Positions 36,280 through 58,455 of a DNA stretch of 64,000 nucleotides are shown one piece after another. The notes beneath the pieces are model-generated. The model did no database searches. It was not told where the DNA came from and saw only the letters and a list, made by a program, of their open reading frames with translations. The stretch's first letter is position 1; each line of letters opens with the position of its first letter. Source of the stretch: Allolobophora icterica (taxonomy: Eukaryota > Annelida > Clitellata > Crassiclitellata > Lumbricidae); the NCBI GenBank assembly GCA_963556255.1, contig OY744616.1, forward strand, positions 36,002,966 to 36,066,965, written 5' to 3'. The position numbers were made by a program, and so were the translations under genes.

Positions 36280-36313
<34 letters not shown>

Positions 36314-36869: not shown

Positions 36870-36990
36870 CTATTAATATTTTTTTATGCCCCGAGGTACA
36901 TATGATCCCTCAGGGGACTTAAATATTAATTAACAGAAGTAGATCATCTGGAACGGCCACTATTCCTCAGGTTTACTCTTATTTCGATCT
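36870..36990 (-). mobile_element. second LINE 3' end of the same family, minus strand
   Basis: On the minus strand the stretch has a GGCCGTTCCAGATGATCTA block and then CCTGAGGGATCATATGTACC and TCGGGGCATAAAAAAAT. This parallels the plus-strand end at 53,085-53,160. Confidence 0.65.
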
Positions 36991-37129
36991 CGATTCTCCA
37001 ATAACATAGTTCGATGTTCGACTGTGATTTCTCCTAAAGCTACCATTGATTGATGCCTGTTGCATTATTATAACGCTATAGAAGCTATTCAGTTAATCGA
37101 GTTGTCTTTCGGTAATTTCAATTCTTTGC
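36991..37129. other. left margin of the endogenous virus
   Basis: 139 bp between LINE sequence and the integrase stop codon. No terminal inverted repeat matching the right margin (51,730-52,200) could be found by eye. Confidence 0.4.
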
Positions 37130-38533
37130 TTAAGTGATGCAATCAAATTGTTCTTGCTGAACAACGTGCGTGCTTACTGTTACGTTAACTTCGCTTAGCG
37201 CATCGGAAAGAATATTTGGCATTTCTTTTGTGACAGTTATCTTATAGGTCGGAGGATCGGTGTATTGAATTTTTGTCACAGTAAAGGTCTCTTCCGTCCA
37301 TCTAGGCGTAAAGCCCGCCTCAAAGAATTTCTTCTTTTTAGAAATTCGGACTCTGTCGCCTATTGAAAATTTCGGTTTATTAGGCGGTTTTGGATTCAAT
37401 CCGCCATATAAATTTTTCCATACAGTGGTCTCATTTATCTTTATACTCGCTTTTATTGGAGTCATTTTTATGGAAGAACGTCTAGTGTTGTTATAACGAG
37501 CAACCATATTTTCTAAAACATCGATATATTTCCTAGTCGAATTAGCTGTGAAATATTTGAACATCTTCTCCTTCATCGTTCTGTTCCAACGTTCGATAAC
37601 GGATGACTTCTCTTCATTTTCAATAGAGTAAATCTGGAATCCAATTGATTTCACGTTTTTATTATAAAACTCCTTACCCTTATCGACCCACAGTTTCTCG
37701 GGTTTTCGTCCGCTACTGGAAAATATATTGGTGAAAGCATCGAACACAGATTTTCCGCTTTTATCTTTTATCGGGACAAGCCACCCGTATTTTGAAAATA
37801 TATCGATAACACTTAATAAATATTTAACGCCATTGTTATATTTCGCGAAAGATTGCATGTCTATGAGGTCTGCAGCCCAAGTGTCGTCAACACCTTTAAC
37901 GTAAACCTTCCTTTTAGTAAAATGTCGTATTACCGGTTTATGCAATTGTTCGGCGAGTTCATCCGTCCATTTTTGAGACGGTTTAACAGCTGGCTTTGAA
38001 TCGGAAGTACCTAAACCTAAACCAAGATTGGCTTTTGTCATCAAAATAGGTTTAATTATCGCTCTTTCGACGCGCTCACGTAATGTAGGATTATTTATAT
38101 TATTTAATTCATTTACCATTACTCTGTCGGCTGCATTTCTAGCAGCGGTATCCGAATACTGGTCATAAGCCAAATCATGAGAGTATGCTGCTTGGTCGAT
38201 TCTGTCAACTGGTTTACTCCAGTCTTTGGGGGAGCCGTCAGGATTCAATCTTAAATCTAATCTAGTTCCTGGTCCCGTAAACGAATGTCCTGGAAGATGC
38301 AATTCTCCAGGAAATTTTGACCACGGCAATTTTATATTCTTAGTAGCTGAATTTAAAGACCCAACTAGATCGCCTCCTGTTTTGGCAGCGGAAAGAAATC
38401 GAGTTTTAGTTTTTCCGCAGTCGGAACATACGGCTCTAATCATAGGTCTTTTATTTTTACTGATGAAATTTTGAGTATCTGTCATTTCGGTTTCTCTCTT
38501 GCACTTTACGCAATACATCTGTTCCATATACAT
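37130..38533 (-). CDS. zinc ribbon - phospholipase A2 - integrase fusion protein
   Basis: 467 residues transcribed leftward, opposite to the other viral genes. Residues 8-39 form a zinc ribbon (C8, C11, C36, C39) like DUF5679. Residues about 80-165 resemble the parvovirus VP1-type phospholipase A2: calcium loop GPGT 87-90 and catalytic HDxxY at H119-Y123. That activity is known to breach endosomal membranes during virus entry. Residues about 215-340 form an rve integrase core with D222, D284 and E314. The D284-E314 spacing is 29 residues, shorter than the usual 35. A C-terminal SH3/chromo-like segment (about 388-432) follows. Joining a capsid-entry enzyme to an integrase in one frame is unusual. 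The start is the first ATG, 35 bp from the divergent ATPase start. Confidence 0.88.
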   Translation of the reverse strand: MYMEQMYCVKCKRETEMTDTQNFISKNKRPMIRAVCSDCGKTKTRFLSAAKTGGDLVGSLNSATKNIKLPWSKFPGELHLPGHSFTGPGTRLDLRLNPDGSPKDWSKPVDRIDQAAYSHDLAYDQYSDTAARNAADRVMVNELNNINNPTLRERVERAIIKPILMTKANLGLGLGTSDSKPAVKPSQKWTDELAEQLHKPVIRHFTKRKVYVKGVDDTWAADLIDMQSFAKYNNGVKYLLSVIDIFSKYGWLVPIKDKSGKSVFDAFTNIFSSSGRKPEKLWVDKGKEFYNKNVKSIGFQIYSIENEEKSSVIERWNRTMKEKMFKYFTANSTRKYIDVLENMVARYNNTRRSSIKMTPIKASIKINETTVWKNLYGGLNPKPPNKPKFSIGDRVRISKKKKFFEAGFTPRWTEETFTVTKIQYTDPPTYKITVTKEMPNILSDALSEVNVTVSTHVVQQEQFDCIT

Positions 38534-38568
38534 TTTAATATAAAACTATTTTTATAATTAAAAAAGAA
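38534..38568. promoter_or_regulatory. 35-bp divergent intergenic region
   Basis: Separates the leftward integrase gene from the rightward ATPase gene. It is almost pure A/T and would have to hold both start-site-proximal elements. Confidence 0.6.
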
Positions 38569-39351
38569 ATGGAAGTTAAAGATTTATCCTGGAACGACGA
38601 GACATCTAAAAGATTTAATAACCCGTTATTACCTAGAAGTATAAGGGGTCTGATCGTTGGGAAGTCTGGATGCGGTAAGACTACGCTATTATTAAATTTA
38701 CTTTTGAATCCAGGATGGTTAGATTACGACAGCTTACAGGTATTTGGAAGATCTCTCTTTCAACCAGAATATAAAATACTTAAAAAAGCATTCGAAGAAA
38801 AGTTATCGAAAGAAGCAATTGTCAATTTGTTTGGTTGTCAAGACGAGATTGCAAGGTTAAATGTATCGCCAGCATTAGTCGTTGAAGAAATGGCTAAAAG
38901 CACAGTTAAAAAATCCGATATGAACTGTCGATTCTTTGAAACTTCGGAAGAAGTGCCCGATCCGAGAGACTTGAATCAGCATAAAAAGAACTTGATGATT
39001 TTCGACGATTTACAATTAGAAAAACAAAACAAATGTGAATCGTATTACATCAGAGGAAGACACAGTAATGTTGATTCGTTTTACCTCGCACAAAACTACT
39101 TCAAACTGCCTAGACAGACCATCAGAGAGAATTCAAACTTTATCTGTTTATTTCGTCAAGACCTTAAAAATATTAATAATATATACAACGATCACGTAGG
39201 CGTAGATGATATGCCTAAAGACGAATTTGTAAAACTGTGCAAAACTGCGTGGGAGCGTCCGCACGGATTTGTAGTGATAGATTTAACCAGTAAAAAGAAC
39301 AACGGTAAGTATAGGAGTGCGTTGGATACATTTTATATGCCTTCAGCATAA
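38569..39351 (+). CDS. genome-packaging ATPase (FtsK/HerA, A32-like)
   Basis: 260 residues. Walker A is GKSGCGKTT at 31-39 and Walker B is LMIFDD at 142-147, followed by the DSFYLAQNYFKLPRQTIREN block that serves as the sensor/arginine-finger region in this family. The protein would pump viral DNA into the preformed capsid. Length is typical for Polinton and adintovirus ATPases. It is the first rightward gene, and its start is fixed by the short gap to the integrase gene. A decayed relative of its C-terminal half lies at 54,600-54,850, outside the element. Confidence 0.93.
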   Translation: MEVKDLSWNDETSKRFNNPLLPRSIRGLIVGKSGCGKTTLLLNLLLNPGWLDYDSLQVFGRSLFQPEYKILKKAFEEKLSKEAIVNLFGCQDEIARLNVSPALVVEEMAKSTVKKSDMNCRFFETSEEVPDPRDLNQHKKNLMIFDDLQLEKQNKCESYYIRGRHSNVDSFYLAQNYFKLPRQTIRENSNFICLFRQDLKNINNIYNDHVGVDDMPKDEFVKLCKTAWERPHGFVVIDLTSKKNNGKYRSALDTFYMPSA

Positions 39352-39371
39352 GCCTTCAGCTTCTTCATAAG

Positions 39372-39402
39372 TTATATATTATATATATATTATATATATA
39401 AA
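39372..39402 (+). promoter_or_regulatory. TATATA run upstream of the penton-like gene
   Basis: A continuous TATATA tract ends 3 nt before ATG 39,403. It belongs to the set of TA-rich tracts found before most structural genes of the element. Confidence 0.6.
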
Positions 39403-40194
39403 ATGGAAGCGCGATTGGAAAAGATAGTTCTCAACACAGAAAAGATCGCTCGTAACACGGAGCCTAAAGAGTCATTCAGCATTTTGGTGAGCGAAAGGAG
39501 CACGCAAATTAGAACTAAATTTAATCCTCTGATTCAACTTGACAAAAACAAAAAGTATGAAATGTGTCTTGTTAATTTAGAGACTTATTTTTCCTTCCCG
39601 AATATATATTCTTTAAACAACAAATTTGCGTATTCGCCGGATAATGGTAAAACGTGGTTTACTATAGAAATCCCAGAAGGGAGTTACGAAATCGTAGATA
39701 TAAACGAACACATTCAGAGAATCATGAAACAATCAGGACATTATGACGAAACGGGAGATGCGTACTGTATAACGTTACAAGCGAACAACAATACTTTGAA
39801 ATCGGTGTTAGATATCGGTGCTAACTATCAGGTTAATATGACAATCGAGAACTCGATTAGAACTGTTTTAGGATTTAATAGCCGAGTGTATTCAGAAGGA
39901 TATAACGAATCCGAGAACATAGTAAATATTATGAACGTAAATAGTTTGAGAGTAACCAGTGACGTAATAGGATCTTCGTACTCTAACGGAACAACGGAAA
40001 ACATTATATATTCCTTTTTCCCGAATGTAGGTCCCGGATACAAGATTATAGAAGTGCCCGTTAATTTAGTATATCTTCCTATTACGCTATTTACGATTTC
40101 GGCTATGGAAACAAAACTCACAGATCAAAATGGAAAACTAATCAACCTTCGAGGAGAGGAGTTGTCGATCAGGTTTAAAATTAGAGAAGTGTGA
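39403..40194 (+). CDS. penton-like minor capsid protein
   Basis: 263 residues, beta-rich and without membrane segments. The position between the ATPase and core protein genes, the length, and the N-terminal coil followed by FSILVSERSTQIRTKFNPLI and KYEMCLVNLETYFSFPNI fit the single-jelly-roll penton proteins of Polintons and adintoviruses, which sit at capsid vertices. The identification rests on context and overall pattern, with no catalytic motif to check. It ends four bases into the longer possible frame of the next gene. Confidence 0.7.
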   Translation: MEARLEKIVLNTEKIARNTEPKESFSILVSERSTQIRTKFNPLIQLDKNKKYEMCLVNLETYFSFPNIYSLNNKFAYSPDNGKTWFTIEIPEGSYEIVDINEHIQRIMKQSGHYDETGDAYCITLQANNNTLKSVLDIGANYQVNMTIENSIRTVLGFNSRVYSEGYNESENIVNIMNVNSLRVTSDVIGSSYSNGTTENIIYSFFPNVGPGYKIIEVPVNLVYLPITLFTISAMETKLTDQNGKLINLRGEELSIRFKIREV

Positions 40195-40230
40195 AAATTA
40201 ATTATCGTGGTATTAAAGTTTTTAATTTCA

Positions 40231-40244
40231 ATTATATATATAAA
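40231..40244 (+). promoter_or_regulatory. TATATATA box before ATG 40,245
   Basis: ATTATATATATAAA lies directly before the start codon. It supports the downstream start over the in-frame ATG-like start at 40,191 that overlaps the preceding gene. Confidence 0.6.
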
Positions 40245-40868
40245 ATGAGTCGATATACGAATACAAAAGTTAATGTTTCGGATGGACAAAAAGACAAAAT
40301 TAAACGCGCAGTTGAAGCAGGGACAGGAACGAGTATAAGACTAACTCACGCAGATCTATCCGGGGAACACGTCTTAGCTCTTACACGAGCACAAATTAAT
40401 AAAATGGCGAAAGCATATCAGAATGGAACGGGTACTATGCTCAAAATGAGTAAAACGCAAATACACCATAATATGAAAGTCGAAGGTGGTTTTCTTCCAG
40501 CGTTATTACCACTTCTAGCTACAGCTGGAAAATTCCTTCTTTCTAGCGTTCTGCCAAGTCTTGCAACTGGAGCTTTAAGCGGATTAGCGAGTACAGGTGT
40601 AAGTAAGTTAATGGGATCTGGTGTTAATGGAAGTGCTTTATACATAAAGAAAGGAGGAAGAAGCTACAAGATGGTTCCGCACGCAGCAGGTCTTTACCTG
40701 AAACCATGGTCAGGGTCGGGATTAGACGGTGTAGGAGAAGGACTGTACATGCGCAGAGGTTCTGGATTTGTCAATGGTTCAGGATTGATTCTTGGAAACG
40801 ACAATCCTATTTCAAAAGTACTTTCTAACATCCCAATCCTTGGTCCGCTTCTTGGAATGATTCTGTAA
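40245..40868 (+). CDS. Polinton/adintovirus core-like protein with hydrophobic centre
   Basis: 207 residues from ATG 40,245. The N-terminal half is polar and basic (GQKDKIKRAV, then LTRAQINKMAKAY and KMSKTQIHHNMKVEGGF). A hydrophobic glycine- and alanine-rich segment follows (about 83-125, FLPALLPLLATAGKFLLSSV). The C-terminus is glycine-rich and ends in a second hydrophobic stretch. Similar small proteins next to the penton gene in this virus group are thought to be virion core or membrane-active components, comparable in position to adenovirus core/pVI-type proteins. The exact role is not known. An in-frame extension to 40,191 exists but would overlap the penton-like gene. Confidence 0.65.
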   Translation: MSRYTNTKVNVSDGQKDKIKRAVEAGTGTSIRLTHADLSGEHVLALTRAQINKMAKAYQNGTGTMLKMSKTQIHHNMKVEGGFLPALLPLLATAGKFLLSSVLPSLATGALSGLASTGVSKLMGSGVNGSALYIKKGGRSYKMVPHAAGLYLKPWSGSGLDGVGEGLYMRRGSGFVNGSGLILGNDNPISKVLSNIPILGPLLGMIL

Positions 40869-40904
40869 ATATATATATTAATATATATATATAAATAATA
40901 TATA

Positions 40905-41306
40905 ATGTCGCGATACGGTATGCCAATGCACAAGTTTATAACAAAACGCAATTCTCCGAGGAGAGTTAGAACTCGACCAGAATCAGTATTTTGGTTGCCT
41001 AAAGAAGTAACGCATCGGGCTATAAGACAACCGGGCTCACAGCGTTGGGAGATTTTCGCACAACGAGCCATCACAATTCAACCCAGATCGTCGGTCTCGC
41101 AAGAGCTAGGATTTGGCGTTCGACTAACTAGGGGAGTCTGTCTAGTCTCGCTTAGACAAGCGATTAAAGAAAAGAAATGTAGCTTGCAAGATTCAACCAT
41201 TTGCGAAGATGTAGAAGACATTGTTATCACTATTCAAAACAATTCCGATTCTGTAGTTATCATTAACGAAAAAGATTCGCTATGCTACATTAATTACCAC
41301 GTTTAA
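40905..41306 (+). CDS. unknown viral protein, possible dUTPase-like fold
   Basis: 133 residues. The N-terminal 45 are basic. From about 50 the pattern (AITIQPRSSVSQELGFGVRL, a Cys/Lys loop, then EDIVITIQNNSD and NEKDSLCYINY) resembles the beta-prism of trimeric dUTPases. The spacing of a central strand pair and a final G/K-D-x-L-x-x-I turn is suggestive, but the canonical uridine-binding and catalytic residues are not evident. It may therefore be a structural derivative, or unrelated. A TATATA tract (40,868-40,900) precedes the ATG. Confidence in a real gene is high and in the fold low. Confidence 0.6.
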   Translation: MSRYGMPMHKFITKRNSPRRVRTRPESVFWLPKEVTHRAIRQPGSQRWEIFAQRAITIQPRSSVSQELGFGVRLTRGVCLVSLRQAIKEKKCSLQDSTICEDVEDIVITIQNNSDSVVIINEKDSLCYINYHV

Positions 41307-41334
41307 ATTTTTAAAAATCTTAATAATAATAATA

Positions 41335-41871
41335 ATGGAATATAAACAAGTGGAAAATTCAGCCCAATCGTATCGTTTTAAAAAAATTAACGAAATTCAA
41401 AAAGAAATCGAACAAGAACGCGATAAAAGGACCGCCTTAAGTACAAAGTATCGTAGGAACATAAGAATGATTAGCATTATCGACAACGCTCTGATAGTAA
41501 CTGTGATGGGGCTCAGCAGCTCGGGCCTGGCAGCTCTTGCTACTGTAATTGCAACTCCGGCCATAGCGATAGCAACAGGTACGGCAGTAGGTGTAGGATT
41601 GTTAATTATTATCGGAGGACAAGTTAGTAAGAAGCTTGCACTGAAATTGACAAAGCACGAAAAGATTAAAACGTTAGCGGAAGCAAAACTAAACACAATC
41701 AGTAGCCTTATTTCAAAAGCTCTTGTGGACGACAATATTTCAGACGTTGAATATTCGCTAATTCTAAGCGAGTTTGTGAAATTCAACGATATGAAAGAAA
41801 AAATTAAAAATAAAACCAAAGTTAGCACAGAAAAATTAACGTTTAACGAGAACGTTTTAACGGGAACGTAA
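41335..41871 (+). CDS. viral membrane protein of the Polinton type
   Basis: 178 residues. A charged coiled coil (about 1-45) precedes a long hydrophobic, alanine- and glycine-rich region (about 48-100, probably two transmembrane segments). An amphipathic helical tail follows (HEKIKTLAEAKLNTISSLIS, then DNISDVEYSLILSEFVKF). I know proteins with this layout from Polinton-rich invertebrate genomes. They are presumed virion or host-membrane proteins of unknown function. The gene follows the 133-residue gene by 28 bp and starts after a TAATAATAAT stretch. Confidence 0.6.
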   Translation: MEYKQVENSAQSYRFKKINEIQKEIEQERDKRTALSTKYRRNIRMISIIDNALIVTVMGLSSSGLAALATVIATPAIAIATGTAVGVGLLIIIGGQVSKKLALKLTKHEKIKTLAEAKLNTISSLISKALVDDNISDVEYSLILSEFVKFNDMKEKIKNKTKVSTEKLTFNENVLTGT

Positions 41872-41956
41872 ATTAAACGTTCGAAATCAACGTTCGAATT
41901 TACGTTCGAATTTACGTTTAAAAAATATAGCTATAAGCTTATATAAATAAAATATA
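41872..41956 (+). promoter_or_regulatory. ACGTTCGAATTT tandem repeat and TATA-like start region
   Basis: Three to four copies of an ACGTTCGAA(A/T)T unit at 41,878-41,920. CTTATATAAATAAAATATA runs up to ATG 41,957. The repeat is absent from other viral intergenic gaps. Confidence 0.55.
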
Positions 41957-42889
41957 ATGTCGTTTCTAAAGATAACCGATCCCGCAAAAAGAGATTTTAT
42001 CGTTGAGGAGTTTCTGAAATCGAAGAAGAATATTCGACAAAACTTTTTATCCGAGAGATTAGGAGACATCGGACTACAACGAGAATTAACGAGATTGTAC
42101 AAACCAATAGTCGACTCGCAATCAACAATTTCAAAAGAACAAAAGGCTTTGTTATCTACTATAAAAGAAAACTCTGCAGAGACAGCTAACGCTTTAAAAG
42201 CGCTTCCCGCTTCTATTTCGACATCGTTAAAAGCCATTCAGTTTCCTCAATACCCTTCGATACAGGCTTACGGAGAAGACCCGGTAGGCCTAGAAGATAT
42301 AAAAACCTTAGAACTAGGAGATATTGCGGTGAAGTACCTGCAACAATACGCGTCCGATAAAAAGACGGTAGACACAACGTTCGGAATAAACTCTAAAGAC
42401 GGCCAATTTTATATAGGCGACAGTCCTATATCGATCGACGGCAGTAACGTGACGGTAGGCGATAGGCCTAAGATATACGAAGGAACTCCAGGACTTTGGG
42501 AATTATTAACGATGGCCAAACCGGACGAGTCGATTTTCAATGCAAACGATCGGGAAGAATATGCCGAGATTCTGAAGATAACGAATGCTATGAGGCAGCC
42601 GAAAAATCCAAGTAAACCAAAATCCTCTAGGAGCTTAAAATATAAAAATATTATTAAACCGATATGGGACTCGATGATGTCAAAGGCGCAAGGTAAAGGA
42701 ATAGGCCTACAGCGTATCGTTATTCCTCAAGATCCTAATGCATTAATAGAAATGTTATCTCTGCGAATGGCCAGCTTCGAGGCGGGGAATACGGGTGTGA
42801 GAAATGAGATAGTTGGTATATGCGACGAGTTACTAAGACAAGGAGCGATAAATAAAAATGAATATAAAAATATAATGCTATTAATATAA
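41957..42889 (+). CDS. conserved Polinton/adintovirus virion-associated protein (unknown function)
   Basis: 310 residues, no membrane segments. The N-terminal third is helical and charged. The centre has a beta-rich GINSKDGQFYIGDSPISIDG followed by a GTPGLWELL motif (about 178-186), a signature I associate with a conserved Polinton protein of unknown role. A basic linker (PKNPSKPKSS) and a helical C-terminus follow. Three TAGGCCTA octamers lie in the gene (42,285, 42,463 and 42,702). It ends 3 nt before the next ATG, so the pair may be co-transcribed. Confidence 0.7.
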   Translation: MSFLKITDPAKRDFIVEEFLKSKKNIRQNFLSERLGDIGLQRELTRLYKPIVDSQSTISKEQKALLSTIKENSAETANALKALPASISTSLKAIQFPQYPSIQAYGEDPVGLEDIKTLELGDIAVKYLQQYASDKKTVDTTFGINSKDGQFYIGDSPISIDGSNVTVGDRPKIYEGTPGLWELLTMAKPDESIFNANDREEYAEILKITNAMRQPKNPSKPKSSRSLKYKNIIKPIWDSMMSKAQGKGIGLQRIVIPQDPNALIEMLSLRMASFEAGNTGVRNEIVGICDELLRQGAINKNEYKNIMLLI

Positions 42890-42892
42890 AAA

Positions 42893-43471
42893 ATGTTAGT
42901 AGTTGCTAAAAGAAGGTATAAGAAACAATATGTTATCGGAGGGGCGGGAATATTCGATGTTGTTGCGGGTTTTTTCAAGAAACTATTTACGTCAAATGCG
43001 GATAAACAAATAGCGTCCACCGCTCTCAGCGTAGGAAAAGATGCGGCTAAAGACATCGGGCAAAAAGCGCTGGATGTTGGTAAAACTGTCGCTGCTGACG
43101 CTGGGAAACGATTAGTCGATAAAGCGATTGCTAAAATTATGAGTCCCAAAAATTTACCGACTACAAGGTCAGCTGCTACGGAACTCGCTTCACATGCGCT
43201 TCCAGCGCTTTCAGCGCTTCCAGCGCTTTCAGCGCTTCCAGCGCTTCCAGCGCTTTCAGCGCTCCAACCGCAGCTGAACGAAGGTAAGGACTTGCTAACT
43301 CAAGAAAGTAAAGACGTGCTAACTAGACTTATTAACGACGGAACGCGTTCGAAGAGTACAAATATAAATAATTTAATGATGGGGCACGGTATGAATTCCA
43401 ATGCAAAGAGCGCTATTAGAATTCAAGATCTCGTTAGACGTTTAAACGGAGCTGGATTGAAAGTTGCATAG
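42893..43471 (+). CDS. core/pVI-like viral protein with ALPALS repeat
   Basis: 192 residues. The start is basic (KRRYKKQ). An amphipathic helix follows (GGAGIFDVVAGFFKKLF, about 16-32), reminiscent of membrane-lytic helices that adenovirus-like particles use. Next come alanine-rich helical repeats (VGKDAAKDIGQKALDVGKTV) and a tandem ALPALSALPALSAL stretch (about 103-126) encoded by 15-bp DNA repeats at 43,198-43,263. A basic C-terminus ends in VRRLNGAGLKVA. It is probably a virion core or lytic protein matured by the viral protease; this is inference from composition and position before the capsid gene. Confidence 0.6.
   Translation: MLVVAKRRYKKQYVIGGAGIFDVVAGFFKKLFTSNADKQIASTALSVGKDAAKDIGQKALDVGKTVAADAGKRLVDKAIAKIMSPKNLPTTRSAATELASHALPALSALPALSALPALPALSALQPQLNEGKDLLTQESKDVLTRLINDGTRSKSTNINNLMMGHGMNSNAKSAIRIQDLVRRLNGAGLKVA
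43198..43263 (+). repeat. in-frame minisatellite inside a viral gene
   Basis: About six units built from CTTCCAGCG and CTTTCAGCG. All keep frame and give alternating ALPAL and SAL residues. Confidence 0.9.
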
Positions 43472-43519
43472 GTTATTTATATTTAAATAAAATAAAATCA
43501 TATATTATTAATAAAAAAA

Positions 43520-44581: not shown

Positions 44582-44820
44582 CGCAGAGTAATATAACACC
44601 GAGTGATTATAAAGAACTATATCCGCTAATGATTTTCGACGTTAGCAAACAATCTGAGAGATTGAAATCGTCGGTCGTCGATATTCAGATCAAAGCTATA
44701 TTTAATACGGCAGTGCCGGCCGAAACCGAAGCTTATGCTATCGTAATTTCGGACAAGTTGCTAGAGTTTCAGTCGGACGGGCAGAAGCTAAACGTCGTCT
44801 ACGGTAGGAGCTCGTCTTAA
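44575..44820 (+). pseudogene. C-terminal part of the major capsid protein in shifted frame
   Basis: About 80 codons with no good ATG of their own (a TTG begins the open stretch). The segment (DYKELYPLMIFDVSKQSERL, then DIQIKAIFN and AYAIVISDKLLEF) is the characteristic final strand set of Polinton-type capsid proteins. It overlaps the end of the upstream frame by 7 nt. It supports a single ancestral gene. Confidence 0.85.
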
Positions 44821-44877
44821 ATCGCCGCGATTTAAATGCTAAATGCTAAGGGTGAAGGCTATGAATAAAATTTCTTT

Positions 44878-44901
44878 TTTTTCTTAAACATACATAAAGA
44901 G
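44878..44901 (+). promoter_or_regulatory. TTTTTCTTAAACA box before the SAP-like gene
   Basis: TTTTTCTTAAACA at 44,878-44,890, then TACATAAAGAG and the ATG. The same 13-mer at the same distance precedes the polymerase region (45,499-45,511). It is not seen before the structural genes. Confidence 0.65.
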
Positions 44902-45444
44902 ATGTTTACTTATATTAGTAATAAGAAGATGAAACTTCCAGAGCTGAGAAGCTTACTGGTCCAGCACAACATTAGGGGTTGTGCTCATCTCAACAAGCCC
45001 GAACTTATAGCTCTATTGAGCGCAATGGAGATTTGTGTTCAAGATAACTCAGAAAAAGAGAAACTAGAGAAACTACAGAGACGACAAAGGCAAGAACTGC
45101 AGAAAGAGCAGCAGAAAGAATATCGAAAAGCATATCAGATAGAATATCAGAAAGGATACTGGAAAGAATATCGGAAAGAACGAATACTTAAAAGAAACTA
45201 CCAGGAAGGCGCGTATGATAGAACGAGGTATATCAGAAATCAGCCGAGAAAAGTAGAAATTTTAGACCTAGAAACCGGTGATGTTGTCGTGTATCCGTCG
45301 ATATACAAAGCAGCTAAGGCGCACGGGCAAAATGCACCAATAATAGAATGGTATAATGGAAAAGTATGGCGAAATAGATACAAAATCAAGGTGTACGATC
45401 GCATTAACGACAAAACTATCGATTCCGTTGTGAATGAGCTGTGA
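44902..45444 (+). CDS. SAP-like and NUMOD-like DNA-binding protein
   Basis: 180 residues. An N-terminal SAP/LEM-like helix pair (KLPELRSLLVQHNIRG, then NKPELIALLSAM; about 10-45) is followed by a highly charged coiled coil with repeated EYxKxYQ units (about 55-105). A C-terminal module (VEILDLETGDVVVYPSIYKA, then AKAHGQNAPIIEW) resembles the NUMOD helix-turn-helix found beside homing endonucleases, with Ser-Ile-x-x-Ala-A as landmark. It is therefore a probable DNA-binding protein acting in replication or transcription. Its upstream box is shared with the polymerase gene, which fits joint early expression. The family is not formally recognised. Confidence 0.6.
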   Translation: MFTYISNKKMKLPELRSLLVQHNIRGCAHLNKPELIALLSAMEICVQDNSEKEKLEKLQRRQRQELQKEQQKEYRKAYQIEYQKGYWKEYRKERILKRNYQEGAYDRTRYIRNQPRKVEILDLETGDVVVYPSIYKAAKAHGQNAPIIEWYNGKVWRNRYKIKVYDRINDKTIDSVVNEL

Positions 45445-45498
45445 GATTTTGGGAAAAAATAAAATAAATAAAAAATTAAACATAAATAAATATTTGTG

Positions 45499-45551
45499 TT
45501 TTTCTTAAACAAGACTTAAAGAAATGAATATATATATGTATATATAAAGGA
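45499..45551 (+). promoter_or_regulatory. TTTTTCTTAAACA box and short upstream ORF before DNA polymerase
   Basis: The box at 45,499-45,511 is followed after 12 nt by ATG 45,524. That ATG opens a seven-codon frame through a TATATA repeat and stops at 45,547, five bases before the polymerase ATG at 45,552. It is one base out of frame with the polymerase. It may be a regulatory upstream ORF, or the result of slippage in the TA repeat. Confidence 0.55.
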
Positions 45552-48500
45552 ATGGACTACAAGTTGAAAACTGTAAAAGAATTGAGAGTCATGGCAAAAC
45601 GGAGCGGCATGGTCGGATATTGGAAACTGTCAAAAGCGGATCTGATTGCTGCTATGAGCAAAGATAAAAGCTTGCTCGACTCTCCAGTTCCCAATATTCG
45701 AACCCCAATTCTTACTCCGACCAAGTTCGTTTCCAAGCCAAATAAAGTTCTCAGTGAGTTGAAAACTAAGGTTAGGTCGAATGTTAATTCTTTTGCAGAT
45801 TGGTTAATTAGTTACATACCTCCTAAAGTGAAGAAACCTGTGAACGAAAGATTGGAATCGTTTAAATCGAAAATAAAGACTCTCTTTGCTAAAATCAATA
45901 CTAAGAAGTTCGAAATTCGAAAGACTGCATCGGCAATTAAAGGATTCACTAAACAATACACTATTGACGGTTCTTCTGGAATCGATGCAGTATCTTTTCT
46001 TAACGCCGTTAGACCGCAGGTGGTTAGTCTGTTGTCAAGAGATCGTCAGGTTAAGGTTCAACTCGTTCTTACATGTACCATGGAGCGCGTTGATATGAAA
46101 TCTGGAGAAGAAGAATCCGCGAATGTTCCATTCGTCTCGAAAACTGAAGTTATTTTAGATGCTACCGATATTAACGAAATATACAATAATGCAATAAATA
46201 AGATCCCAGAGACTATGGCGAGTTTTCAGATGCGGGGAAGTAATTGGAGATTCGTTAATGTTGTTAAATTAGATGTCAATACTGCTGTGTATAAACCACT
46301 GAAAGGCAGTTCTTACATTCCGTTGCCTACAGAACTATCTAGCAAAAAGGCTATTATCAATATGAAAAACGATGACGACCAATGTTTCAAGTGGTGCATT
46401 ACTAGAGCTTTAAATCCAACTGACAATCATCCCGAAAGAATTACGAAAGAATTAATCAAACAATCGAAGAAACTCGATTGGAGCGATATCGAATTTCCGG
46501 TTGCGGCGGATGCTAATATAATAAGCAAGTTTGAAAGAAATAATAATATAAGCGTTGACGTATTCGGTTATGAAAATAAGATAGTATTCCCAATTTATGT
46601 GTCGAATCAACGAGACGATAAAGTTTCTATCGTTGAACTATTGCTTATTTCAGACGGAGATAAGAAACATTATTGTTGGATAAAGAATTTTAACAGATTG
46701 ATGTCATCACGTACAGAAAAGTCAACTATATCAATGCACTATTGTAGAAGATGTTTAAACGGTTATACAAGAATAGAAGCGCTCAATAAACATACCGTGT
46801 ACTGTTCGCAAAACGCCGCTCAAAAAATAGAAGTCCCAGAACCGGGAACTACGTTAAGTTTTAAAAATTATAATAGGTCGATGAGAGTTCCCTTTATCGT
46901 TTATGCAGATTTCGAATCTTTCATCAAACCTATAGCCACTTGCAAGCCAGATCCTCGCGTGTCTTACACCGATAAATACCAAAAACACACGCCTAGCTCG
47001 TTTTGTTATTACGTAAAATGCTTCGACGATATATTATATCAACAAGATCCTGTAACGTACACGGCCGAAAGCGAAGACGACGATATCGGTCAAATATTCG
47101 TAGAAAGTCTCGAAGAGACTATAAAACGAATATACAATCAGTTTAAATTTCCGAAGAAGATGATATTTACTCCAGATGACCGAAAAAAGTTTAAGGAAAC
47201 TACTTTATGTCATATCTGTGGAGGGGCGTTGGGTACAGATCGGGTTCGAGATCACTGTCATTTGAGCGGTAAATTCAGAGGGGTCGCTCATAATGGTTGT
47301 AATCTAGACTATAAAGTTCCGAGGTTCTTTCCAGTAGTATTTCATAATCTGTCCGGATACGACAGCCATCTGTTCGTAAAAAAATTGCGAGGTGATCAGA
47401 ATGAGAAAATTAAATGCATTCCTAATAACGAAGAGAAGTACATATCGTTTAGCAGAGAAGTGATCGTCGATAAGTTTCTAAACAAAGAAGGGAAAGAAAT
47501 TAATGTTAAACGCGAATTGCGATTTATCGACAGTTTTAGATTCATGGCCTCGAGTCTTGACGCTTTATCTAAGAATCTGAAGAAAGAACAATGTAAAAAT
47601 CTTGGCGCATTATATTCTGGGAAACAGCTCGATCTTTTACTTAAAAAAGGAATTTACCCGTACGATTACGTTACTTCCGTCGATAGATTTAACGAAACCG
47701 AACTACCTCCCAAGTCCGCATTTTATTCGCGGCTAAACGACTCAGATATTAGCGACGAAGATTACGATCACGCCAAAACTGTATGGAATGCATTCGGATG
47801 TAAAACGTTTAGAGAATACCACGACCTGTACAATGTTTCGGATGTTCTACTTTTAGCCGATGTTTTCGAAAACTTTAGAGACGTATGCATGAAGAATTAT
47901 CGGCTAGATCCCGCATGGTATTACACTTCTCCGGGACTGGCCTGGGATGCCGCTTTGAAGTTGACCGGTATAAAGTTGGAGTTGTTGAGCGATTACGATA
48001 TGATTCTGATGATTAAGCAAGGAATAAGAGGAGGCATCAGCACAATTTCGAATCGTTATGGGAAAGCCAACAATAAGTATATGACGGCGGATAAATTCGA
48101 TAGCAGCGAGCCTTCGTCATATATAACTTATCTAGACGCTAATAATTTATACGGTTGGGCGATGAGCAAGCCTTTACCGACTCGTGGATTTAAATGGATG
48201 AGCGACGACGAGCTAAATAATTGGAATGTTTTGGGATCGTGTATATTGGAAGTGGATTTGGACTATCCTCAAGATATCCATAATCTCCACAACGACTATC
48301 CTCTGGCTCCCGAGAGCATCTCGTCGGAATTTACATCTAATATACCAAAACTAATTCCGAACTTGAACGATAAAAAGAAGTACGTGGTACATTACGAAAA
48401 TTTGAAGTTGTACGAAAGGCTCGGGTTGAAGATCGCGAAAATTCATAGAGGGATTCTATTCGAAGAAAGCCCTTGGTTGAAATATTATGTAGACCTAAAC

Positions 48501-49328
48501 ACTGAATTGAGAACGAGTGCCACTAATAACTTTGAGAAAGACTTTTTCAAATTGATGAACAATAGCGTCTTTGGAAAAACTCTTGAAAGGATCGAAAATC
48601 ATGTAGATATAAAATTGGTATGTCACGAGAAGGAAGCTATTAAGTTAGTTGCAAAAACTAATTATGACCGCCTGACGATTTTCGACGAGAATCTAATCGC
48701 CGTTCACATGAAAAGGACGAAGTTGTTTTATAATAAACCGATATACCTAGGCATGTGCATATTAGACTTAAGTAAAACTTTGATGTACGACTTTCATTAC
48801 AATTTTATACGACAAAAATACGGCGATAAAGCTAAATTGTTATTCACCGATACAGATTCATTGGCATATGAAATACAAACAGAAGATTTTTACGAGGATA
48901 TCGCCGAAGACGTTGCGGTTCGATTCGATACGAGTGATTACCCTGAAGATCACCCCTCGGGTTTAAAGACCGGAATGAACAAGAAAGTTATCGGTATGTT
49001 CAAAGACGAATCTGCAGGAAAACAGATTTTCGAGTTCGTAGGTTTAAGGGCCAAGTTGTACTCGTATAGAATGGATGGCGAAGATCATAAGAAGTGTAAA
49101 GGCATTAAGCAAAATGTCGTGAAGAAAACGATAACTCACGATGATTACAAAAACTGTCTGTTTACCAAGAGAGAACGACTAAGAAAAATGAACGTTTTTA
49201 GATCGTATCATCACGATATTTATACCGAACAGGTAAATAAAGTTGCATTATCCGCGGATGATGACAAACGAGTAATAATGGAAGACGGTATTCACACACT
49301 AGCGTACGGACATTACTCTTTACGCTGA
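45552..49328 (+). CDS. protein-primed family B DNA polymerase with N-terminal extension
   Basis: 1,258 residues, replicates the viral genome. A SAP-like start (KLKTVKELRVMAKRSG, 5-36) is followed by a basic linker and a domain at about 265-395 with D-D-D-Q-C278-F and H373-Y-C-W, an arrangement like OTU-type cysteine proteases. A C2H2-like finger lies at about 398-418. The exonuclease has D453/E455 (YADFESF), FHNLSGYDSH (597-606) and Y760-x3-D764. A Cys/His cluster (C553, C556, H568, H570, C583) is inserted in it. Polymerase motifs are A (LDANNLYGW, D862), B (KLMNNSVFGK from 1,000) and C (FTDTDS, D1100/D1102). All catalytic acids are present. Terminal-protein function may reside in the N-terminal part. 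The OTU reading is tentative. Confidence 0.95.
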   Translation: MDYKLKTVKELRVMAKRSGMVGYWKLSKADLIAAMSKDKSLLDSPVPNIRTPILTPTKFVSKPNKVLSELKTKVRSNVNSFADWLISYIPPKVKKPVNERLESFKSKIKTLFAKINTKKFEIRKTASAIKGFTKQYTIDGSSGIDAVSFLNAVRPQVVSLLSRDRQVKVQLVLTCTMERVDMKSGEEESANVPFVSKTEVILDATDINEIYNNAINKIPETMASFQMRGSNWRFVNVVKLDVNTAVYKPLKGSSYIPLPTELSSKKAIINMKNDDDQCFKWCITRALNPTDNHPERITKELIKQSKKLDWSDIEFPVAADANIISKFERNNNISVDVFGYENKIVFPIYVSNQRDDKVSIVELLLISDGDKKHYCWIKNFNRLMSSRTEKSTISMHYCRRCLNGYTRIEALNKHTVYCSQNAAQKIEVPEPGTTLSFKNYNRSMRVPFIVYADFESFIKPIATCKPDPRVSYTDKYQKHTPSSFCYYVKCFDDILYQQDPVTYTAESEDDDIGQIFVESLEETIKRIYNQFKFPKKMIFTPDDRKKFKETTLCHICGGALGTDRVRDHCHLSGKFRGVAHNGCNLDYKVPRFFPVVFHNLSGYDSHLFVKKLRGDQNEKIKCIPNNEEKYISFSREVIVDKFLNKEGKEINVKRELRFIDSFRFMASSLDALSKNLKKEQCKNLGALYSGKQLDLLLKKGIYPYDYVTSVDRFNETELPPKSAFYSRLNDSDISDEDYDHAKTVWNAFGCKTFREYHDLYNVSDVLLLADVFENFRDVCMKNYRLDPAWYYTSPGLAWDAALKLTGIKLELLSDYDMILMIKQGIRGGISTISNRYGKANNKYMTADKFDSSEPSSYITYLDANNLYGWAMSKPLPTRGFKWMSDDELNNWNVLGSCILEVDLDYPQDIHNLHNDYPLAPESISSEFTSNIPKLIPNLNDKKKYVVHYENLKLYERLGLKIAKIHRGILFEESPWLKYYVDLNTELRTSATNNFEKDFFKLMNNSVFGKTLERIENHVDIKLVCHEKEAIKLVAKTNYDRLTIFDENLIAVHMKRTKLFYNKPIYLGMCILDLSKTLMYDFHYNFIRQKYGDKAKLLFTDTDSLAYEIQTEDFYEDIAEDVAVRFDTSDYPEDHPSGLKTGMNKKVIGMFKDESAGKQIFEFVGLRAKLYSYRMDGEDHKKCKGIKQNVVKKTITHDDYKNCLFTKRERLRKMNVFRSYHHDIYTEQVNKVALSADDDKRVIMEDGIHTLAYGHYSLR

Positions 49329-49359
49329 GCACATAAAGAATCTATTCGTTGATTATAAA

Positions 49360-49806
49360 ATGAGTTTTAGAAGTGTTACAGAAATTGACGTTTGCGGAGT
49401 CGTGTTACCGAATGTTCCTTTGTCGAATATACAACTGCTAGACGCCGCGAAGAAGAAACTAAATATCACAAACTTTAGAGGCGTGTTCCTACGAGACGAG
49501 TTGCCCGAGAGACCGAGTAGGCCAACTAACGAAAGCGGCATTCTTAATCTAGATAAATCTAGTGGGAGCGGGACTCATTGGGTGTGTTGGATCAAGAAGA
49601 AAGGCGAAATTTCGGCGAAATATTTCGACGGCTATGGTCTCCCTCCACCTACCGAGCTACTGAAATATTTACGTCGTCCGGTTTATTACAACAGCGAACG
49701 AATACAGCCCGATAACGAAGTGTTTTGCGGTCATCTGTGCTTGTACGTGTTGAAGATGATGGACGATGGCGCGAATTTTCAGGAAGTTATAAACGGTTTG
49801 TTTTAA
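49360..49806 (+). CDS. adenain-like cysteine protease
   Basis: 148 residues, of the adenovirus-protease/Ulp1 clan that matures virion precursors. The catalytic order His-Asp-Gln-Cys is visible: H73 in GTHWVCW, D90 in YFDGYG, Q116 and C123 in FCGHLCLYVL. It is shorter than adenain (about 200) but normal for Polinton and adintovirus proteases. Likely substrates are the core, pVI-like and penton-like proteins of the same element. It starts 31 bp after the polymerase stop and ends before a TATATA tract. Confidence 0.92.
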   Translation: MSFRSVTEIDVCGVVLPNVPLSNIQLLDAAKKKLNITNFRGVFLRDELPERPSRPTNESGILNLDKSSGSGTHWVCWIKKKGEISAKYFDGYGLPPPTELLKYLRRPVYYNSERIQPDNEVFCGHLCLYVLKMMDDGANFQEVINGLF

Positions 49807-49835
49807 TATATATATATATCTATATATATTATAAA
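49807..49835 (+). promoter_or_regulatory. TATATA tract before fibre-like gene 1
   Basis: A TATATATATC/TATATATAT run ends 7 nt before ATG 49,836. The N-terminus encoded from that ATG matches fibre-like gene 2, which fixes the start and rules out the longer frame through the protease gene. Confidence 0.65.
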
Positions 49836-50543
49836 ATGCCTGTGGATAAATTCGGACATACTGATGTTGGATATTCAGAAAGAGTAATTGCCGGAGGAGT
49901 TACATTGTCTCAAGCAAATGCTACTTTCCTTCGTATGGATGGAACAAACGCTGCGACCGAGAATATTAATTTAGATTCTCATAAAATTGTCAACGTGTCA
50001 GATCCTACTAACCCCCAAGATGGTGCTACCAAATATTACGTAGATAATGCTCATAAGAAATGTTATCTCGGATATATACCTAATTTAGAAACCGACGAGA
50101 GTAGTACCGGATTCGTCGCTAGTGCCAGTTCACACATAGACGGATATCGAGCGTACGGAGCGTTCAATAGTCTAAACGCGGATGGTTTGAACGGATCTTG
50201 GGTTTCTAATGATTCTTTGAATACCTGGATACAGATAAAATGTCCTGAGCCGGTTAAAATTTGGCGAATCGCGTTGAAAGCCATCGATAATGTACATAGA
50301 ATACACAGTGTCTTTTGGGCCATATCAGGGCGTAACGACGGCGATTCGACATTTACGACGTTATTTACGATGACGACTCCGTTATACAGAACCGCAACTG
50401 CCCCGTCATTTTTCAATATTTCAACGAATACTGCGTATCAGTATTACAGATTTACGAAAACACATATTCCCGGTGGGACTATTATTATCGGTCAGATTAA
50501 CGTAGGACTTCATAGCATACAATTATACATATACGATACTTAA
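49836..50543 (+). CDS. fibre-like receptor-binding protein 1 (short)
   Basis: 235 residues. Residues 1-70 are almost identical to fibre-like protein 2 and include a phage-tail-fibre-type shaft unit (NLDSHKIVNVSDPTNPQDGA, then TKYYVD). Such units trimerise into beta-helical shafts. Residues about 73-235 form a compact beta-rich head with WIQIKCPEPVKIWRIALKAI-like strands and a final LYIYDT, resembling F5/8 type C (discoidin) domains that bind glycans or lipids. It probably projects from the capsid and binds cells. It lacks the middle shaft of gene 2. Its place at the right end after the protease, in a duplicated pair, suggests diversification of host attachment. Confidence 0.75.
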   Translation: MPVDKFGHTDVGYSERVIAGGVTLSQANATFLRMDGTNAATENINLDSHKIVNVSDPTNPQDGATKYYVDNAHKKCYLGYIPNLETDESSTGFVASASSHIDGYRAYGAFNSLNADGLNGSWVSNDSLNTWIQIKCPEPVKIWRIALKAIDNVHRIHSVFWAISGRNDGDSTFTTLFTMTTPLYRTATAPSFFNISTNTAYQYYRFTKTHIPGGTIIIGQINVGLHSIQLYIYDT

Positions 50544-50640
50544 ATCGTGGTAGGTTATTCATGAGCTCACCCAACGGTTTGTTCTGATATAAATAAAATA
50601 TATATACATTGTATATATATTTTGTGTATATATACTAAAA
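50544..50640 (+). promoter_or_regulatory. gap with polyadenylation-like word and TATATA promoter
   Basis: GATATAAATAAAATATATA and later TGTATATATATTTTGTGTAT and ATATAC, then ATG 50,641. It shares the TATATA character of the other structural-gene starts. Confidence 0.55.
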
Positions 50641-51729
50641 ATGCCTGTGGATAAATTCGGACATACTGATGTTGGATACTCGGAAAGAATAATTGCCGGA
50701 GGAGTTACATTGTCTCAAGCAAATGCTACTTTCCTTCGTATGGATGGAACAAACGCCGCGACCGAGAATATTAATTTAGATTCTCATAAACTGGTCAACG
50801 TGTTAGAACCTACTAATTCCCAAGATGGTGCTACCAAAAATTACGTAGATTTAAACAGCGGTGTAAACAAAGTTTCTAAGACTGGTGACGTTATGACCGG
50901 CAATCTATTTTTAAGTGTGGGCTCGGATCGTCAACGTAATATGGGGTGTAAGGATCTACGCGGAAACAAACTGTTTGCTTTGATACTGGGTAATCTGTTA
51001 AACAAAATAGAAGGTTATTTAAACCAACCTATAACGTTGCAATCGATCGAAGGTTTCTTGTGCAAAGTGGGAACGGAAAATATAATTCGATTCGGTAAAT
51101 CGTCCAGCGACCATAAAATCGATGTTTACCAAGATATAGTTATGAGACAAAAATCTATAACCGATTTAAAAAACCCCGTTAATCCTCAAGATGCCTCCAC
51201 TAAAAATTATGTAGATAACGCTCTTAGTAGAGCGGATAATAATGCTCTGAAAAAATGTCATATCGGATACATACCTATTTTGGAGGCTGACGAAAGTGTT
51301 ACCGGATTTATGGCAAGTGCTAGTTCAACTGTTACTGACAAGTATCAAGCGTATGGAGCTTTCAATAGTCTAAATGCAGATGGTTCAAACGGAACATGGA
51401 TCGCGGATAGTAGGTCAATCCTAAATGTCTGGCTGCAGATAAAATGTCCTGAGCCGGTTAAAATTTGGAGAATTGCGTTGAAAGCGATAAGACACAACAG
51501 AGGCACATACCAGATTACAAACTGGATTTTAAACGGAAGTAACGATGGATCAACGTTTACCCAATTATTAAGATCGACGCAGGCATTATTAAACACCGAA
51601 TCTGCTCCGTCATTTTTTAATGTTTTAACCAATACTGCGTACCAGTTTTACAGACTTACAGTAACAAGCAACCCCAGTCACACTGTGGTAGGGGTAGAAG
51701 TCCTACAATTATATGTATACGATACTTAA
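50641..51729 (+). CDS. fibre-like receptor-binding protein 2 (long)
   Basis: 362 residues. A common base (1-70) ends in SQDGATKNYVD. A second shaft section (about 78-192) has VMTGNLFL and a second unit ending PQDASTKNYVD (182-192). The head (about 205-362) is a discoidin-like domain related to that of gene 1 (WLQIKCPEPVKIWRIALKAI, then LQLYVYDT), but with diverged loops such as DSRSILN and RHNRGTYQ. The GD(V/T)MTGNL and NPQDxxTKxYVD words are those of bacteriophage tail fibres, and the family presumably forms trimeric spikes. Loop divergence on a conserved base is what one expects for changing receptor specificity. Confidence 0.78.
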   Translation: MPVDKFGHTDVGYSERIIAGGVTLSQANATFLRMDGTNAATENINLDSHKLVNVLEPTNSQDGATKNYVDLNSGVNKVSKTGDVMTGNLFLSVGSDRQRNMGCKDLRGNKLFALILGNLLNKIEGYLNQPITLQSIEGFLCKVGTENIIRFGKSSSDHKIDVYQDIVMRQKSITDLKNPVNPQDASTKNYVDNALSRADNNALKKCHIGYIPILEADESVTGFMASASSTVTDKYQAYGAFNSLNADGSNGTWIADSRSILNVWLQIKCPEPVKIWRIALKAIRHNRGTYQITNWILNGSNDGSTFTQLLRSTQALLNTESAPSFFNVLTNTAYQFYRLTVTSNPSHTVVGVEVLQLYVYDT

Positions 51730-52206: not shown

Positions 52207-52207
52207 C

Positions 52208-52262
<55 letters not shown>
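52207..52262. repeat. (TAA)n microsatellite
   Basis: A continuous TAA array, comparable to the TTA array at the left side of the viral element. Confidence 0.95.
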
Positions 52263-52500: not shown

Positions 52501-52559
52501 TTTATGTGCTCCTCACCAATGCCCTTGTGGAGCGACGGTCCAAGAGGACGGCTCACATG

Positions 52560-58162: not shown

Positions 58163-58455
<293 letters not shown>

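What the first reader, a model, noticed from the sequence alone, without database searches (positions are those of the whole stretch)
37130..51729. Nearly intact adintovirus/Polinton-like endogenous virus in an animal chromosome
The sequence shows integrase, packaging ATPase, penton-like and major capsid proteins, adenain-like protease and protein-primed PolB in one 14.6-kb intronless block. Established knowledge: this set defines Maverick/Polinton elements and the adintoviruses. Inference: with only the capsid gene broken, the insertion is recent and the lineage may still produce particles somewhere in this host group.
Basis: partly seen in the sequence, partly recalled or inferred. Interest (0 to 1): 0.9.

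Follow-up and report, generated by a model that had tools for sequence, protein, structure and literature searches.

The report
Young endogenous virus family in earthworm
This stretch is one damaged copy of a large virus-like jumping element that has about 150 similar copies, many with undamaged genes, in the genome of the earthworm Allolobophora icterica, which makes this animal a good place to ask whether such elements still form virus particles.

Summary
The block is a real Polinton (Maverick), an integrated virus with a double-jelly-roll capsid, in an earthworm chromosome. The genome matches Allolobophora icterica wcApoIcte1.1. Integrase, packaging ATPase, major capsid protein, adenain/SUMO-type protease and PolB are confirmed at the stated places; 'penton' rests on position and appearance.

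The window copy is less intact than reported. Besides the frame change in the capsid gene, its left end is gone: homology to sister copies starts at 37,236, so the integrase lacks its chromodomain end and the left terminal repeat is lost. The right end is at 52,208.

The family is the news: 148 PolB sites; capsid gene uninterrupted in 107 of 114 other scored places. Two other copies were read at both ends: 18.5 kb, AGTAG...CTACT, 6-bp target duplications (one exact, one 5 of 6). dN/dS is 0.07-0.08 for the capsid and 0.13 for the protease, but 0.51 for the distal part of fibre 1. Copies recombine (PHI p = 0.001). The capsid is 76% identical to a Hydra chromosomal copy.

Best reading: a recently active, capsid-dependent endogenous virus lineage. 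Particles are inferred, not shown. New member of a known kind.

The parts
37236..52208 (+). Remnant of the Polinton element (14,973 bp); left terminus lost, right terminus ...CCCTACT at 52208
   Evidence: 19 of 20 fetched left ends align from 37236 on. Right end: shared with L010 and L014 up to 52208-52212 and less far with L023, while most of the 30 right-end loci part earlier, many at 52173; L049 carries the reverse complement of this terminus, AGTAGGGAAACTTGATGG
37130..38533 (-). Fused DUF5679 zinc-ribbon + parvovirus-type PLA2 + retroviral-type integrase ORF; true element part 37236-38533; chromodomain-like C-terminus lost
   Evidence: Pfam; solved integrases 2x6n 2.2e-4 and PFV integrase 3l2q 0.0025; PLA2 motifs HDLAY and FTGPG (motifs recalled); comparison with sister copies
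38569..39351 (+). Packaging ATPase (FtsK/A32 type)
   Evidence: PF04665 3.1e-09; Walker A GKSGCGKT
39403..40194 (+). Putative penton / minor capsid protein
   Evidence: Position and appearance only; no significant family match
40191..40868 (+). Putative core/membrane-active protein (weak adenovirus pX/mu-like match)
   Evidence: PF05829 E = 0.0011, below Pfam cut-off; no PHROG match
40905..41306 (+). Open frame, 133 aa, function unknown
   Evidence: no match over cut-off
41335..41871 (+). Putative membrane protein, 178 aa
   Evidence: Hydrophobic stretch by eye; weak Pfam matches below cut-off
41957..42889 (+). Open frame, 310 aa, function unknown
   Evidence: no match over cut-off
42893..43471 (+). 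Open frame, 192 aa, function unknown
   Evidence: no family match
43520..44581 (+). Major capsid protein, N-terminal 353 aa; frame ends early in this copy
   Evidence: PF21738 2.4e-45; 107 of 114 other scored places have no stop and an open frame of at least 421 aa
44551..44820 (+). Stretch that holds the C-terminal part of the major capsid protein in a different frame
   Evidence: Three-frame translation, compared by eye with the homologue alignment
44902..45444 (+). HeH/LEM + NUMOD1-like DNA-binding protein, 180 aa
   Evidence: PF12949 1.2e-05, PF07453 6.1e-04, both under cut-off; dN/dS 0.85 among 8 copies, few changes
45552..49328 (+). Family B DNA polymerase with endonuclease-VII-like stretch, 1258 aa, open
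   Evidence: Motifs; 42.5% identity over 1032 columns to a PF03175-matching PolB of the same genome; phrog_423 endonuclease VII 5.2e-06
49360..49806 (+). Adenain/SUMO-type cysteine protease, 148 aa
   Evidence: S273R E = 1e-4; H-D-C pattern, 0 of 1000 shuffles
49836..50543 (+). Fibre-like gene 1: phage tail-fibre-like repeat + discoidin-like distal part
   Evidence: PHROG tail families; no Pfam match; 92.9% DNA identity with fibre 2 over 240 columns at the start; distal dN/dS 0.51 (29 copies)
50641..51729 (+). Fibre-like gene 2: tail-fibre-like repeats + F5/8 type C (discoidin) domain
   Evidence: PF00754 8.2e-07, over cut-off; PHROG tail families; 113 genomic places scored, 100 without stop
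36960..37235 (.). Sequence left of the break; not part of the element family
   Evidence: 12 places in the whole genome: itself and 11 short, diverged ones

Best explanation
A defective copy of a young, high-copy Polinton (Maverick) family of the earthworm Allolobophora icterica. Shown: two sister copies read at both ends are about 18.5 kb, end in AGTAG...CTACT and are flanked by 6-bp duplications (one exact, one 5 of 6); most of the scored sister places have uninterrupted capsid, polymerase and fibre frames; six of seven genes tested are under purifying selection; copies recombine. Inferred: DNA is copied from the ends by the protein-primed PolB, packed by the ATPase into capsids of the double-jelly-roll protein matured by the protease, brought into germline cells by fibre binding and a PLA2 membrane step, and inserted by the integrase. 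The window copy lost its left end and capsid frame during or after insertion and is now probably dead unless helped by other copies.
For: Gene set. 148 PolB sites, control 0. 6-bp target duplications: TCTACC/TCTACC on C7, TACAGT/TACAGC on C3. TIR arms of the C3 copy differ at 2 of about 1,864 positions. Capsid frame uninterrupted in 107 of 114 other scored places, PolB without stop in 31 of 37, window included, fibre 2 in 100 of 113; by my matching of listed coordinates at least 14 of the 37 PolB copies have all three open. dN/dS: MCP 0.083 (7 copies) and 0.072 (tail of the N-part, 8 copies chosen by PolB), protease 0.131 (29), PolB 0.158 (8), INT 0.200 (20), fibre 2 0.214 (30), fibre 1 0.357 (29). 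Recombination: PHI p = 0.001, Rmin 29 in about 6.8 kb of 8 copies; in 7 sisters integrase tiles are 87-99% and PolB-centre tiles 96-100% identical to the window. MCP 76% identical to Hydra vulgaris P0305.
Against: No particle, transcript, extrachromosomal form or empty site was examined. Copies were ranked by protein similarity to the window, so the scored sets lean towards intact and similar ones (MCP 115 scored of 1896 candidates, PolB 37 of 2656, FIB2 113 of 2164). Purifying selection on capsid genes also fits elements that need capsids only inside the cell. No relative was found in IMG/VR with these queries. HeH shows no constraint (0.85). Arms of the C7 copy differ more (95.4% over 835 columns, mostly gaps).
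Confidence: 0.82

Rival explanations
1. A transposon only: the family multiplies inside germline cells by self-synthesised DNA and integrase, and never leaves the cell; capsid genes are kept because replication or integration intermediates need them in cis.
For: All evidence comes from chromosomal copies of one assembly; many recombinant copies could arise inside one nucleus; no relative in IMG/VR with these queries.
Against: Capsid and protease are the most constrained genes and the distal part of fibre 1 is far less so; two tandem receptor-binding-like genes are kept; the capsid is 76% identical in Hydra, another phylum.
Confidence: 0.27
2. The window copy, or much of the family, spreads by help in trans: most copies are passengers of a few competent ones.
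For: The window copy lacks the left end and has a broken capsid frame, yet PolB, protease and both fibres are open; recombination mixes copies.
Against: 107 of 114 other scored capsid frames are uninterrupted; none of the 19 left ends with integrase shares the window's truncation.
Confidence: 0.12
3. Programmed frameshifting in the capsid gene, so that the window gene is not broken.
For: The C-terminal part is present in another frame; PMC11071296 (passages) discusses possible slippery sites in adintovirus penton genes.
Against: 107 of 114 sisters have one continuous frame; most of the 120 listed public homologues are single proteins of 415-447 aa.
Confidence: 0.01
4. Assembly error or contaminant.
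For: The left end is atypical; raw reads were not examined.
Against: Host flanks and target duplications in two sisters; copies on 16 of 16 chromosome-size contigs over; PacBio assembly of QV 53.2 (PMC11530748, passages).
Confidence: 0.02

Closest known systems
Polinton/Maverick elements (Polintoviricetes)
   Same: PolB, RVE integrase, A32-type ATPase, cysteine protease, DJR capsid, size 15-20 kb (PMC4028283, passages), TIRs and 6-bp duplications (PMC8097293, passages); AGT...ACT ends (recalled)
   Different: PolB that Pfam DNA_pol_B_2 misses; integrase fused to DUF5679 and PLA2; two tandem fibre-like genes; more copies with uninterrupted single genes than the maximum of 38 intact elements per vertebrate genome (PMC8097293, passages). 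The criteria differ: theirs counts whole elements, mine single genes, three genes in at least 14
Adintoviruses (Adintoviridae)
   Same: Integrase with chromodomain-like end in sister copies, hexon/penton/adenain/PolB set as described in PMC11071296 (passages)
   Different: Reference sequences were not at hand, so alpha/beta placement is untested; the window copy lacks the chromodomain
Sf Mavericks of Spodoptera frugiperda (PMC5803895, passages)
   Same: A parvovirus-VP1-type PLA2 domain encoded by the element; endonuclease-VII-like stretch in PolB
   Different: There PLA2 sits in a separate CAP ORF; here it is joined to the integrase
Polinton-like viruses with phage-like fibres (PMC12220804, passages)
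   Same: Phage tail-fibre repeats and discoidin domains as attachment proteins
   Different: PLVs mostly lack pPolB and RVE integrase (PMC11071308, passages); this element has both

Membership tests
[quoted passage not shown]
   Family B: motifs A, B, C in order (recalled motifs) and 42.5% identity to a PF03175-matching PolB. Protein priming (terminal-protein domain) was not tested
Polinton/Maverick | Retroviral-type (RVE) integrase | tested here: met
   PF00665 2.9e-07, slightly under Pfam cut-off (31.1 of 32.6 bits); solved integrases 2.2e-4 and PFV 0.0025. In the window copy the C-terminus is lost
Polinton/Maverick | A32/FtsK-type packaging ATPase | tested here: met
   PF04665 3.1e-09, over cut-off
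Polinton/Maverick | Adenain/Ulp1-type cysteine protease | tested here: met
   S273R E = 1e-4; pattern in 0 of 1000 shuffles; no Pfam match
Polinton/Maverick | Double jelly-roll major capsid protein | tested here: met
   PF21738 2.4e-45; no solved-structure match by sequence; broken frame in this copy, uninterrupted in most scored sisters
Polinton/Maverick | Minor capsid (penton) protein | tested here: inconclusive
   No significant match; structure prediction switched off
Polinton/Maverick | Terminal inverted repeats starting AGT, 6-bp target duplication, 15-20 kb | tested here: met
   Two sister copies: 18,465 and 18,517 bp, AGTAG...CTACT, TIR about 1.86 kb (C3), duplications 6 of 6 (C7) and 5 of 6 (C3). 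Window copy: right end only
Adintovirus | PolB with N-terminal OTU-like domain | tested here: inconclusive
   A Cys...His arrangement is visible by eye (recalled motif); no profile or structure test was possible
Adintovirus | Hexon reciprocally recognisable with reference adintovirus hexons by BLASTp | not testable with these tools
   No reference adintovirus sequence available
Adintovirus | Integrase with C-terminal chromodomain | tested here: met
   Sister copies only: PF00385 in 8 of 10 scanned integrases, E 1.6e-4 to 7.1e-3, all under Pfam cut-off, none in L041 and L044 at E <= 0.01; homologue P0016 over cut-off. Lost in the window copy
Polinton-like virus (PLV) | Typically lacks pPolB and RVE integrase | tested here: not met
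   Both present

The most novel reading that the evidence does not exclude
A. icterica carries a live endogenous dsDNA virus: virions with twin discoidin-type fibres still form, co-infect, recombine and reinsert into the germline, and the DUF5679-PLA2-integrase fusion is carried in the particle so that one protein serves membrane escape and integration. This family, and perhaps a second one with DNA_pol_B_2-type PolB, would be animal Polintons caught in the act.
Probability: 0.3. Interest if true: 0.88.

Novelty: new member of a known kind. Interest (0 to 1): 0.58.

Why it matters
Whether animal Polintons form virions is open: PMC8097293 (abstract start in listings, passages) says that Maverick particles have not been observed. 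A soil worm with 148 PolB sites, whose scored copies mostly have uninterrupted capsid genes under the strongest selection of the seven genes tested, turns that into a direct test on collected animals. Two points may be of general use: heavy recombination among endogenous copies, and an integrase joined to a parvovirus-type PLA2, an arrangement common in sequence databases (by my count 107 of the 120 listed hits carry both PF00665 and PF08398; 10 of 10 sister integrases scanned do). I did not find that fusion described in the passages I read after (81 papers, 30 listed, phospholipase passages of five opened) or (0 papers); that is not a full survey.

Tried and rejected
Left end in the window: no inverted repeat of the right end except LINE-like tails and microsatellites; explained by loss of the left end. 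IMG/VR relatives of integrase, capsid (protein and alignment A1) and PolB: none. Rfam: none. Pfam DNA_pol_B_2 on the window PolB: none, even at E = 10 for its C-terminal 659 aa. Solved structures matched by sequence: none for the capsid profile and PolB. FIB1/FIB2 gene conversion within a copy: rejected, within-copy identity 0.9230 equals between-copy 0.9232 (29 copies). First attempt at target duplications on four copies failed because their right ends lie further out. tRNA scan of the mitochondrial piece: none. The capsid tree (66 rows) says little on host jumps because only 3 Hydra rows bear names; they form one group apart from the window. A value of 0.467 for distal fibre 1 was wrong: it held one row (L035) taken from the neighbouring fibre 2, with that row dropped, gives 0.512 for the distal part and 0.168 for residues 1-70. 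Target-duplication proof by an empty paralogous site was tried once and not answered.
Full report
What is there. The block holds, in order, integrase (minus strand), packaging ATPase, a putative penton, several small proteins, the major capsid protein, a HeH/NUMOD1 protein, PolB, an adenain-type protease and two tandem fibre-like genes. Domain calls: PF18930 4.1e-12, PF08398 1.3e-10 and PF00665 2.9e-07 in one 467-aa frame; PF04665 3.1e-09; PF21738 2.4e-45; PF00754 8.2e-07. The protease matches the solved cysteine protease S273R at 1e-4 and has the H-D-C pattern (0 of 1000 shuffles). PolB has motifs A (862), B (1000) and C (1099) in order (motifs recalled; single motifs occur in 6 to 51 of 1000 shuffles). 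Pfam's DNA_pol_B_2 does not see it, but a PolB from elsewhere in the same genome matches that model at 9.6e-24 and is 42.5% identical to it over 1032 columns.

The host. The window lies at C19:36002966-36066965 of a 1,117,693,669-base assembly of 328 contigs. A short contig, C328, carries COX1 in which TGA, ATA and AGA/AGG read as W, M and S, with neighbours nad3-nad2-cox1-cox2-atp8-cox3, which I recall as the annelid order (reading and gene names by eye). Total and scaffold number differ a little (1,117.80 Mb and 356 there). So the host is Allolobophora (Aporrectodea) icterica, and the window is on its chromosome 15.

The window copy is damaged at two places. First, the capsid frame ends at 44581 and the C-terminal part continues in another frame (within about 44551-44820). 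In the genome 115 places were scored; of the 114 others, 107 have no stop and an open frame of at least 421 aa, 5 have stops, 2 have shorter frames. So the break is private to this copy or rare. Second, the left end is lost: of 20 fetched left ends 19 align with the window, all from 37,236; the twentieth (L055) has no integrase there. 16 of the 20 left loci carry an integrase-strand frame of 493-499 aa, L053 474, L052 356, L046 271, L055 96. Ten of the 16 were scanned: all ten carry DUF5679, PLA2 and the integrase core (the core near its cut-off), and 8 of 10 a weak Chromo match, all under Pfam's cut-off. The window's own last residues are unrelated, and the sequence left of 37,236 has only 11 short diverged matches elsewhere. 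The right end is at 52,208: homology with L010 and L014 reaches there, other sisters part earlier, many at 52,173, because right ends differ among subfamilies.

Intact ends. Four copies in different host flanks start with AGTAGTACAATTGG (L042, L043, L045, L047); others with AGTAG variants (L046, L049, L056, L057, by eye). For two copies both ends were read: on C7 the duplication is TCTACC on both sides, on C3 TACAGT and TACAGC, 5 of 6. By arithmetic the elements measure 18,517 and 18,465 bp. The C3 arms differ at 2 of about 1,864 positions; the outer C7 arms are 95.4% identical over 835 columns (5 mismatches, 33 gap positions), so arm identity is not equal among copies. Some pairs of copies share left boundaries that are not AGTAG termini (L039/L040, L051/L052, L044/L048); I take these as recombination or secondary ends, unexplained.

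How many and how young. A 45-base PolB piece with up to 3 mismatches occurs 148 times, control 0 (100 places listed, all exact). PolB: 37 places scored of 2656 candidates, 95-100% identical, 31 without stop, window included. Fibre 2: 113 of 2164 scored, 100 without stop. Matching the listed coordinates by hand, at least 14 of the 37 PolB places have PolB, capsid and fibre 2 all open (in one of them, on C2, capsid and PolB lie about 2.4 kb further apart than usual); for many others one gene was simply not among the scored places. The window and its closest fetched sister differ at 24 bases and one gap in 6,774. No clock for earthworms was available, so I give no date.

Selection (pooled pairwise, window included): MCP N-part 0.083 (7 copies), its tail 0.072 (8), protease 0.131 (29), PolB 0.158 (8), integrase 0.200 (20), fibre 2 0.214 (30), fibre 1 0.357 (29), HeH 0.847 (8, few changes). 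Fibre 1 splits into 0.168 for residues 1-70 and 0.512 for the rest (29 copies); the discoidin part of fibre 2 is 0.281 (30) (which corrects a value). Differences shared by several copies are more constrained than singletons for MCP (0.01 against 0.16), protease (0.08 against 0.47), integrase (0.20 against 0.40) and, less so, PolB and fibres, as expected if copies decay after insertion; HeH goes the other way (1.45 against 0.17, on few changes). An earlier run that also counted the window's own duplicate locus gave similar values. Bias: copies came from searches ranked by protein similarity. MCP tail, protease, fibre 1 and integrase values rest on copies chosen by another gene, so that bias is small for them. 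Dropped rows: L055 for the integrase, L035 for protease and fibre 1. Only seven genes were tested.

Recombination. On 8 copies, 179 informative sites, 5062 of 15931 pairs incompatible, PHI below all 1000 permutations at window sizes 5, 10 and 20 (p = 0.001), Rmin 29. In the same 7 sister copies integrase tiles are 87-99% identical to the window while PolB-centre tiles (45700-47700) are 96-100%.

Beyond this genome. Capsid: 4127 proteins at E <= 0.001 of 5856 candidates; best 91% (P0241); Hydra vulgaris chromosomal P0305 76%. Such identity across phyla suggests transfer between hosts, though most listed hits carry no host name and the tree cannot test it. Fibre relatives include Nematostella and Dreissena proteins. 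The integrase fusion is widespread (2277 hits of the 8000 scored).

How it works, with steps marked. Shown: gene set, ends, duplications, copy number, selection, recombination. Inferred: protein-primed copying from the ends, packaging, fibre attachment, PLA2 membrane step, integration. Against particles: nothing outside chromosomes was examined, and the IMG/VR scans found no relative. A pure transposon that needs capsids inside the cell remains possible.

Novelty. Polintons, discoidin domains in Polinton-like viruses (PMC12220804, passages) and PLA2 in Mavericks (PMC5803895, passages) are known. Intact vertebrate Mavericks number at most 38 in a genome (PMC8097293, passages); I made no such comparison for invertebrates. 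No paper on earthworm Polintons showed up in the 15 rows listed of one search (148 papers held two of the three terms; none of the 15 listed contains the word earthworm, listing only). I file it as a new member of a known kind, made interesting by youth, number and testability.

Noticed in passing
Genome-wide, e.g. L075 (C20:27122900-27126760): A second high-copy PolB family that matches Pfam DNA_pol_B_2: 52 places listed (91 scored of 1541 candidates), none with stops, most frames near 1250 aa; the window's family is not among them.
   Followed up: partly
54678-54845: Relic of another Polinton ATPase gene (79.5% DNA identity over 156 columns; 70.7% protein identity over 41 residues), 2.5 kb right of the element.
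   Followed up: no
24647-31096: Ty3/Gypsy-type LTR retrotransposon (by eye): 1649-aa open frame between two 433-base repeats 99.8% identical, so a recent insertion.
   Followed up: partly
36298-36350, 36879-36975, 52352-52505, 53111-53143: Several LINE-like 3' ends (by eye) with TAA/TTA tails around the element, mimicking inverted repeats.
   Followed up: partly
18276-19694 and 32639-34072: Duplicated single-exon gene pair, 81.8% identical over 1453 columns, on either side of the LTR element; function unknown.
   Followed up: no
3228-4472: Single-exon class-A GPCR-like gene (by eye); no NCBIfam match.
   Followed up: no
58211-58550: Tandem array of an 8-base unit.
   Followed up: no
44902-45444: HeH/NUMOD1 gene shows almost no constraint among copies (8.5 nonsynonymous to 1.5 synonymous shared differences), unlike its neighbours.
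   Followed up: no
G000 contig C257:6513-7808 and C8:61145195-61147845: C257 carries a COX1-type gene without TGA codons (perhaps a bacterial contig), and C8 an inverted pair of COX1 pieces with TGA codons, likely mitochondrial insertions.
   Followed up: no
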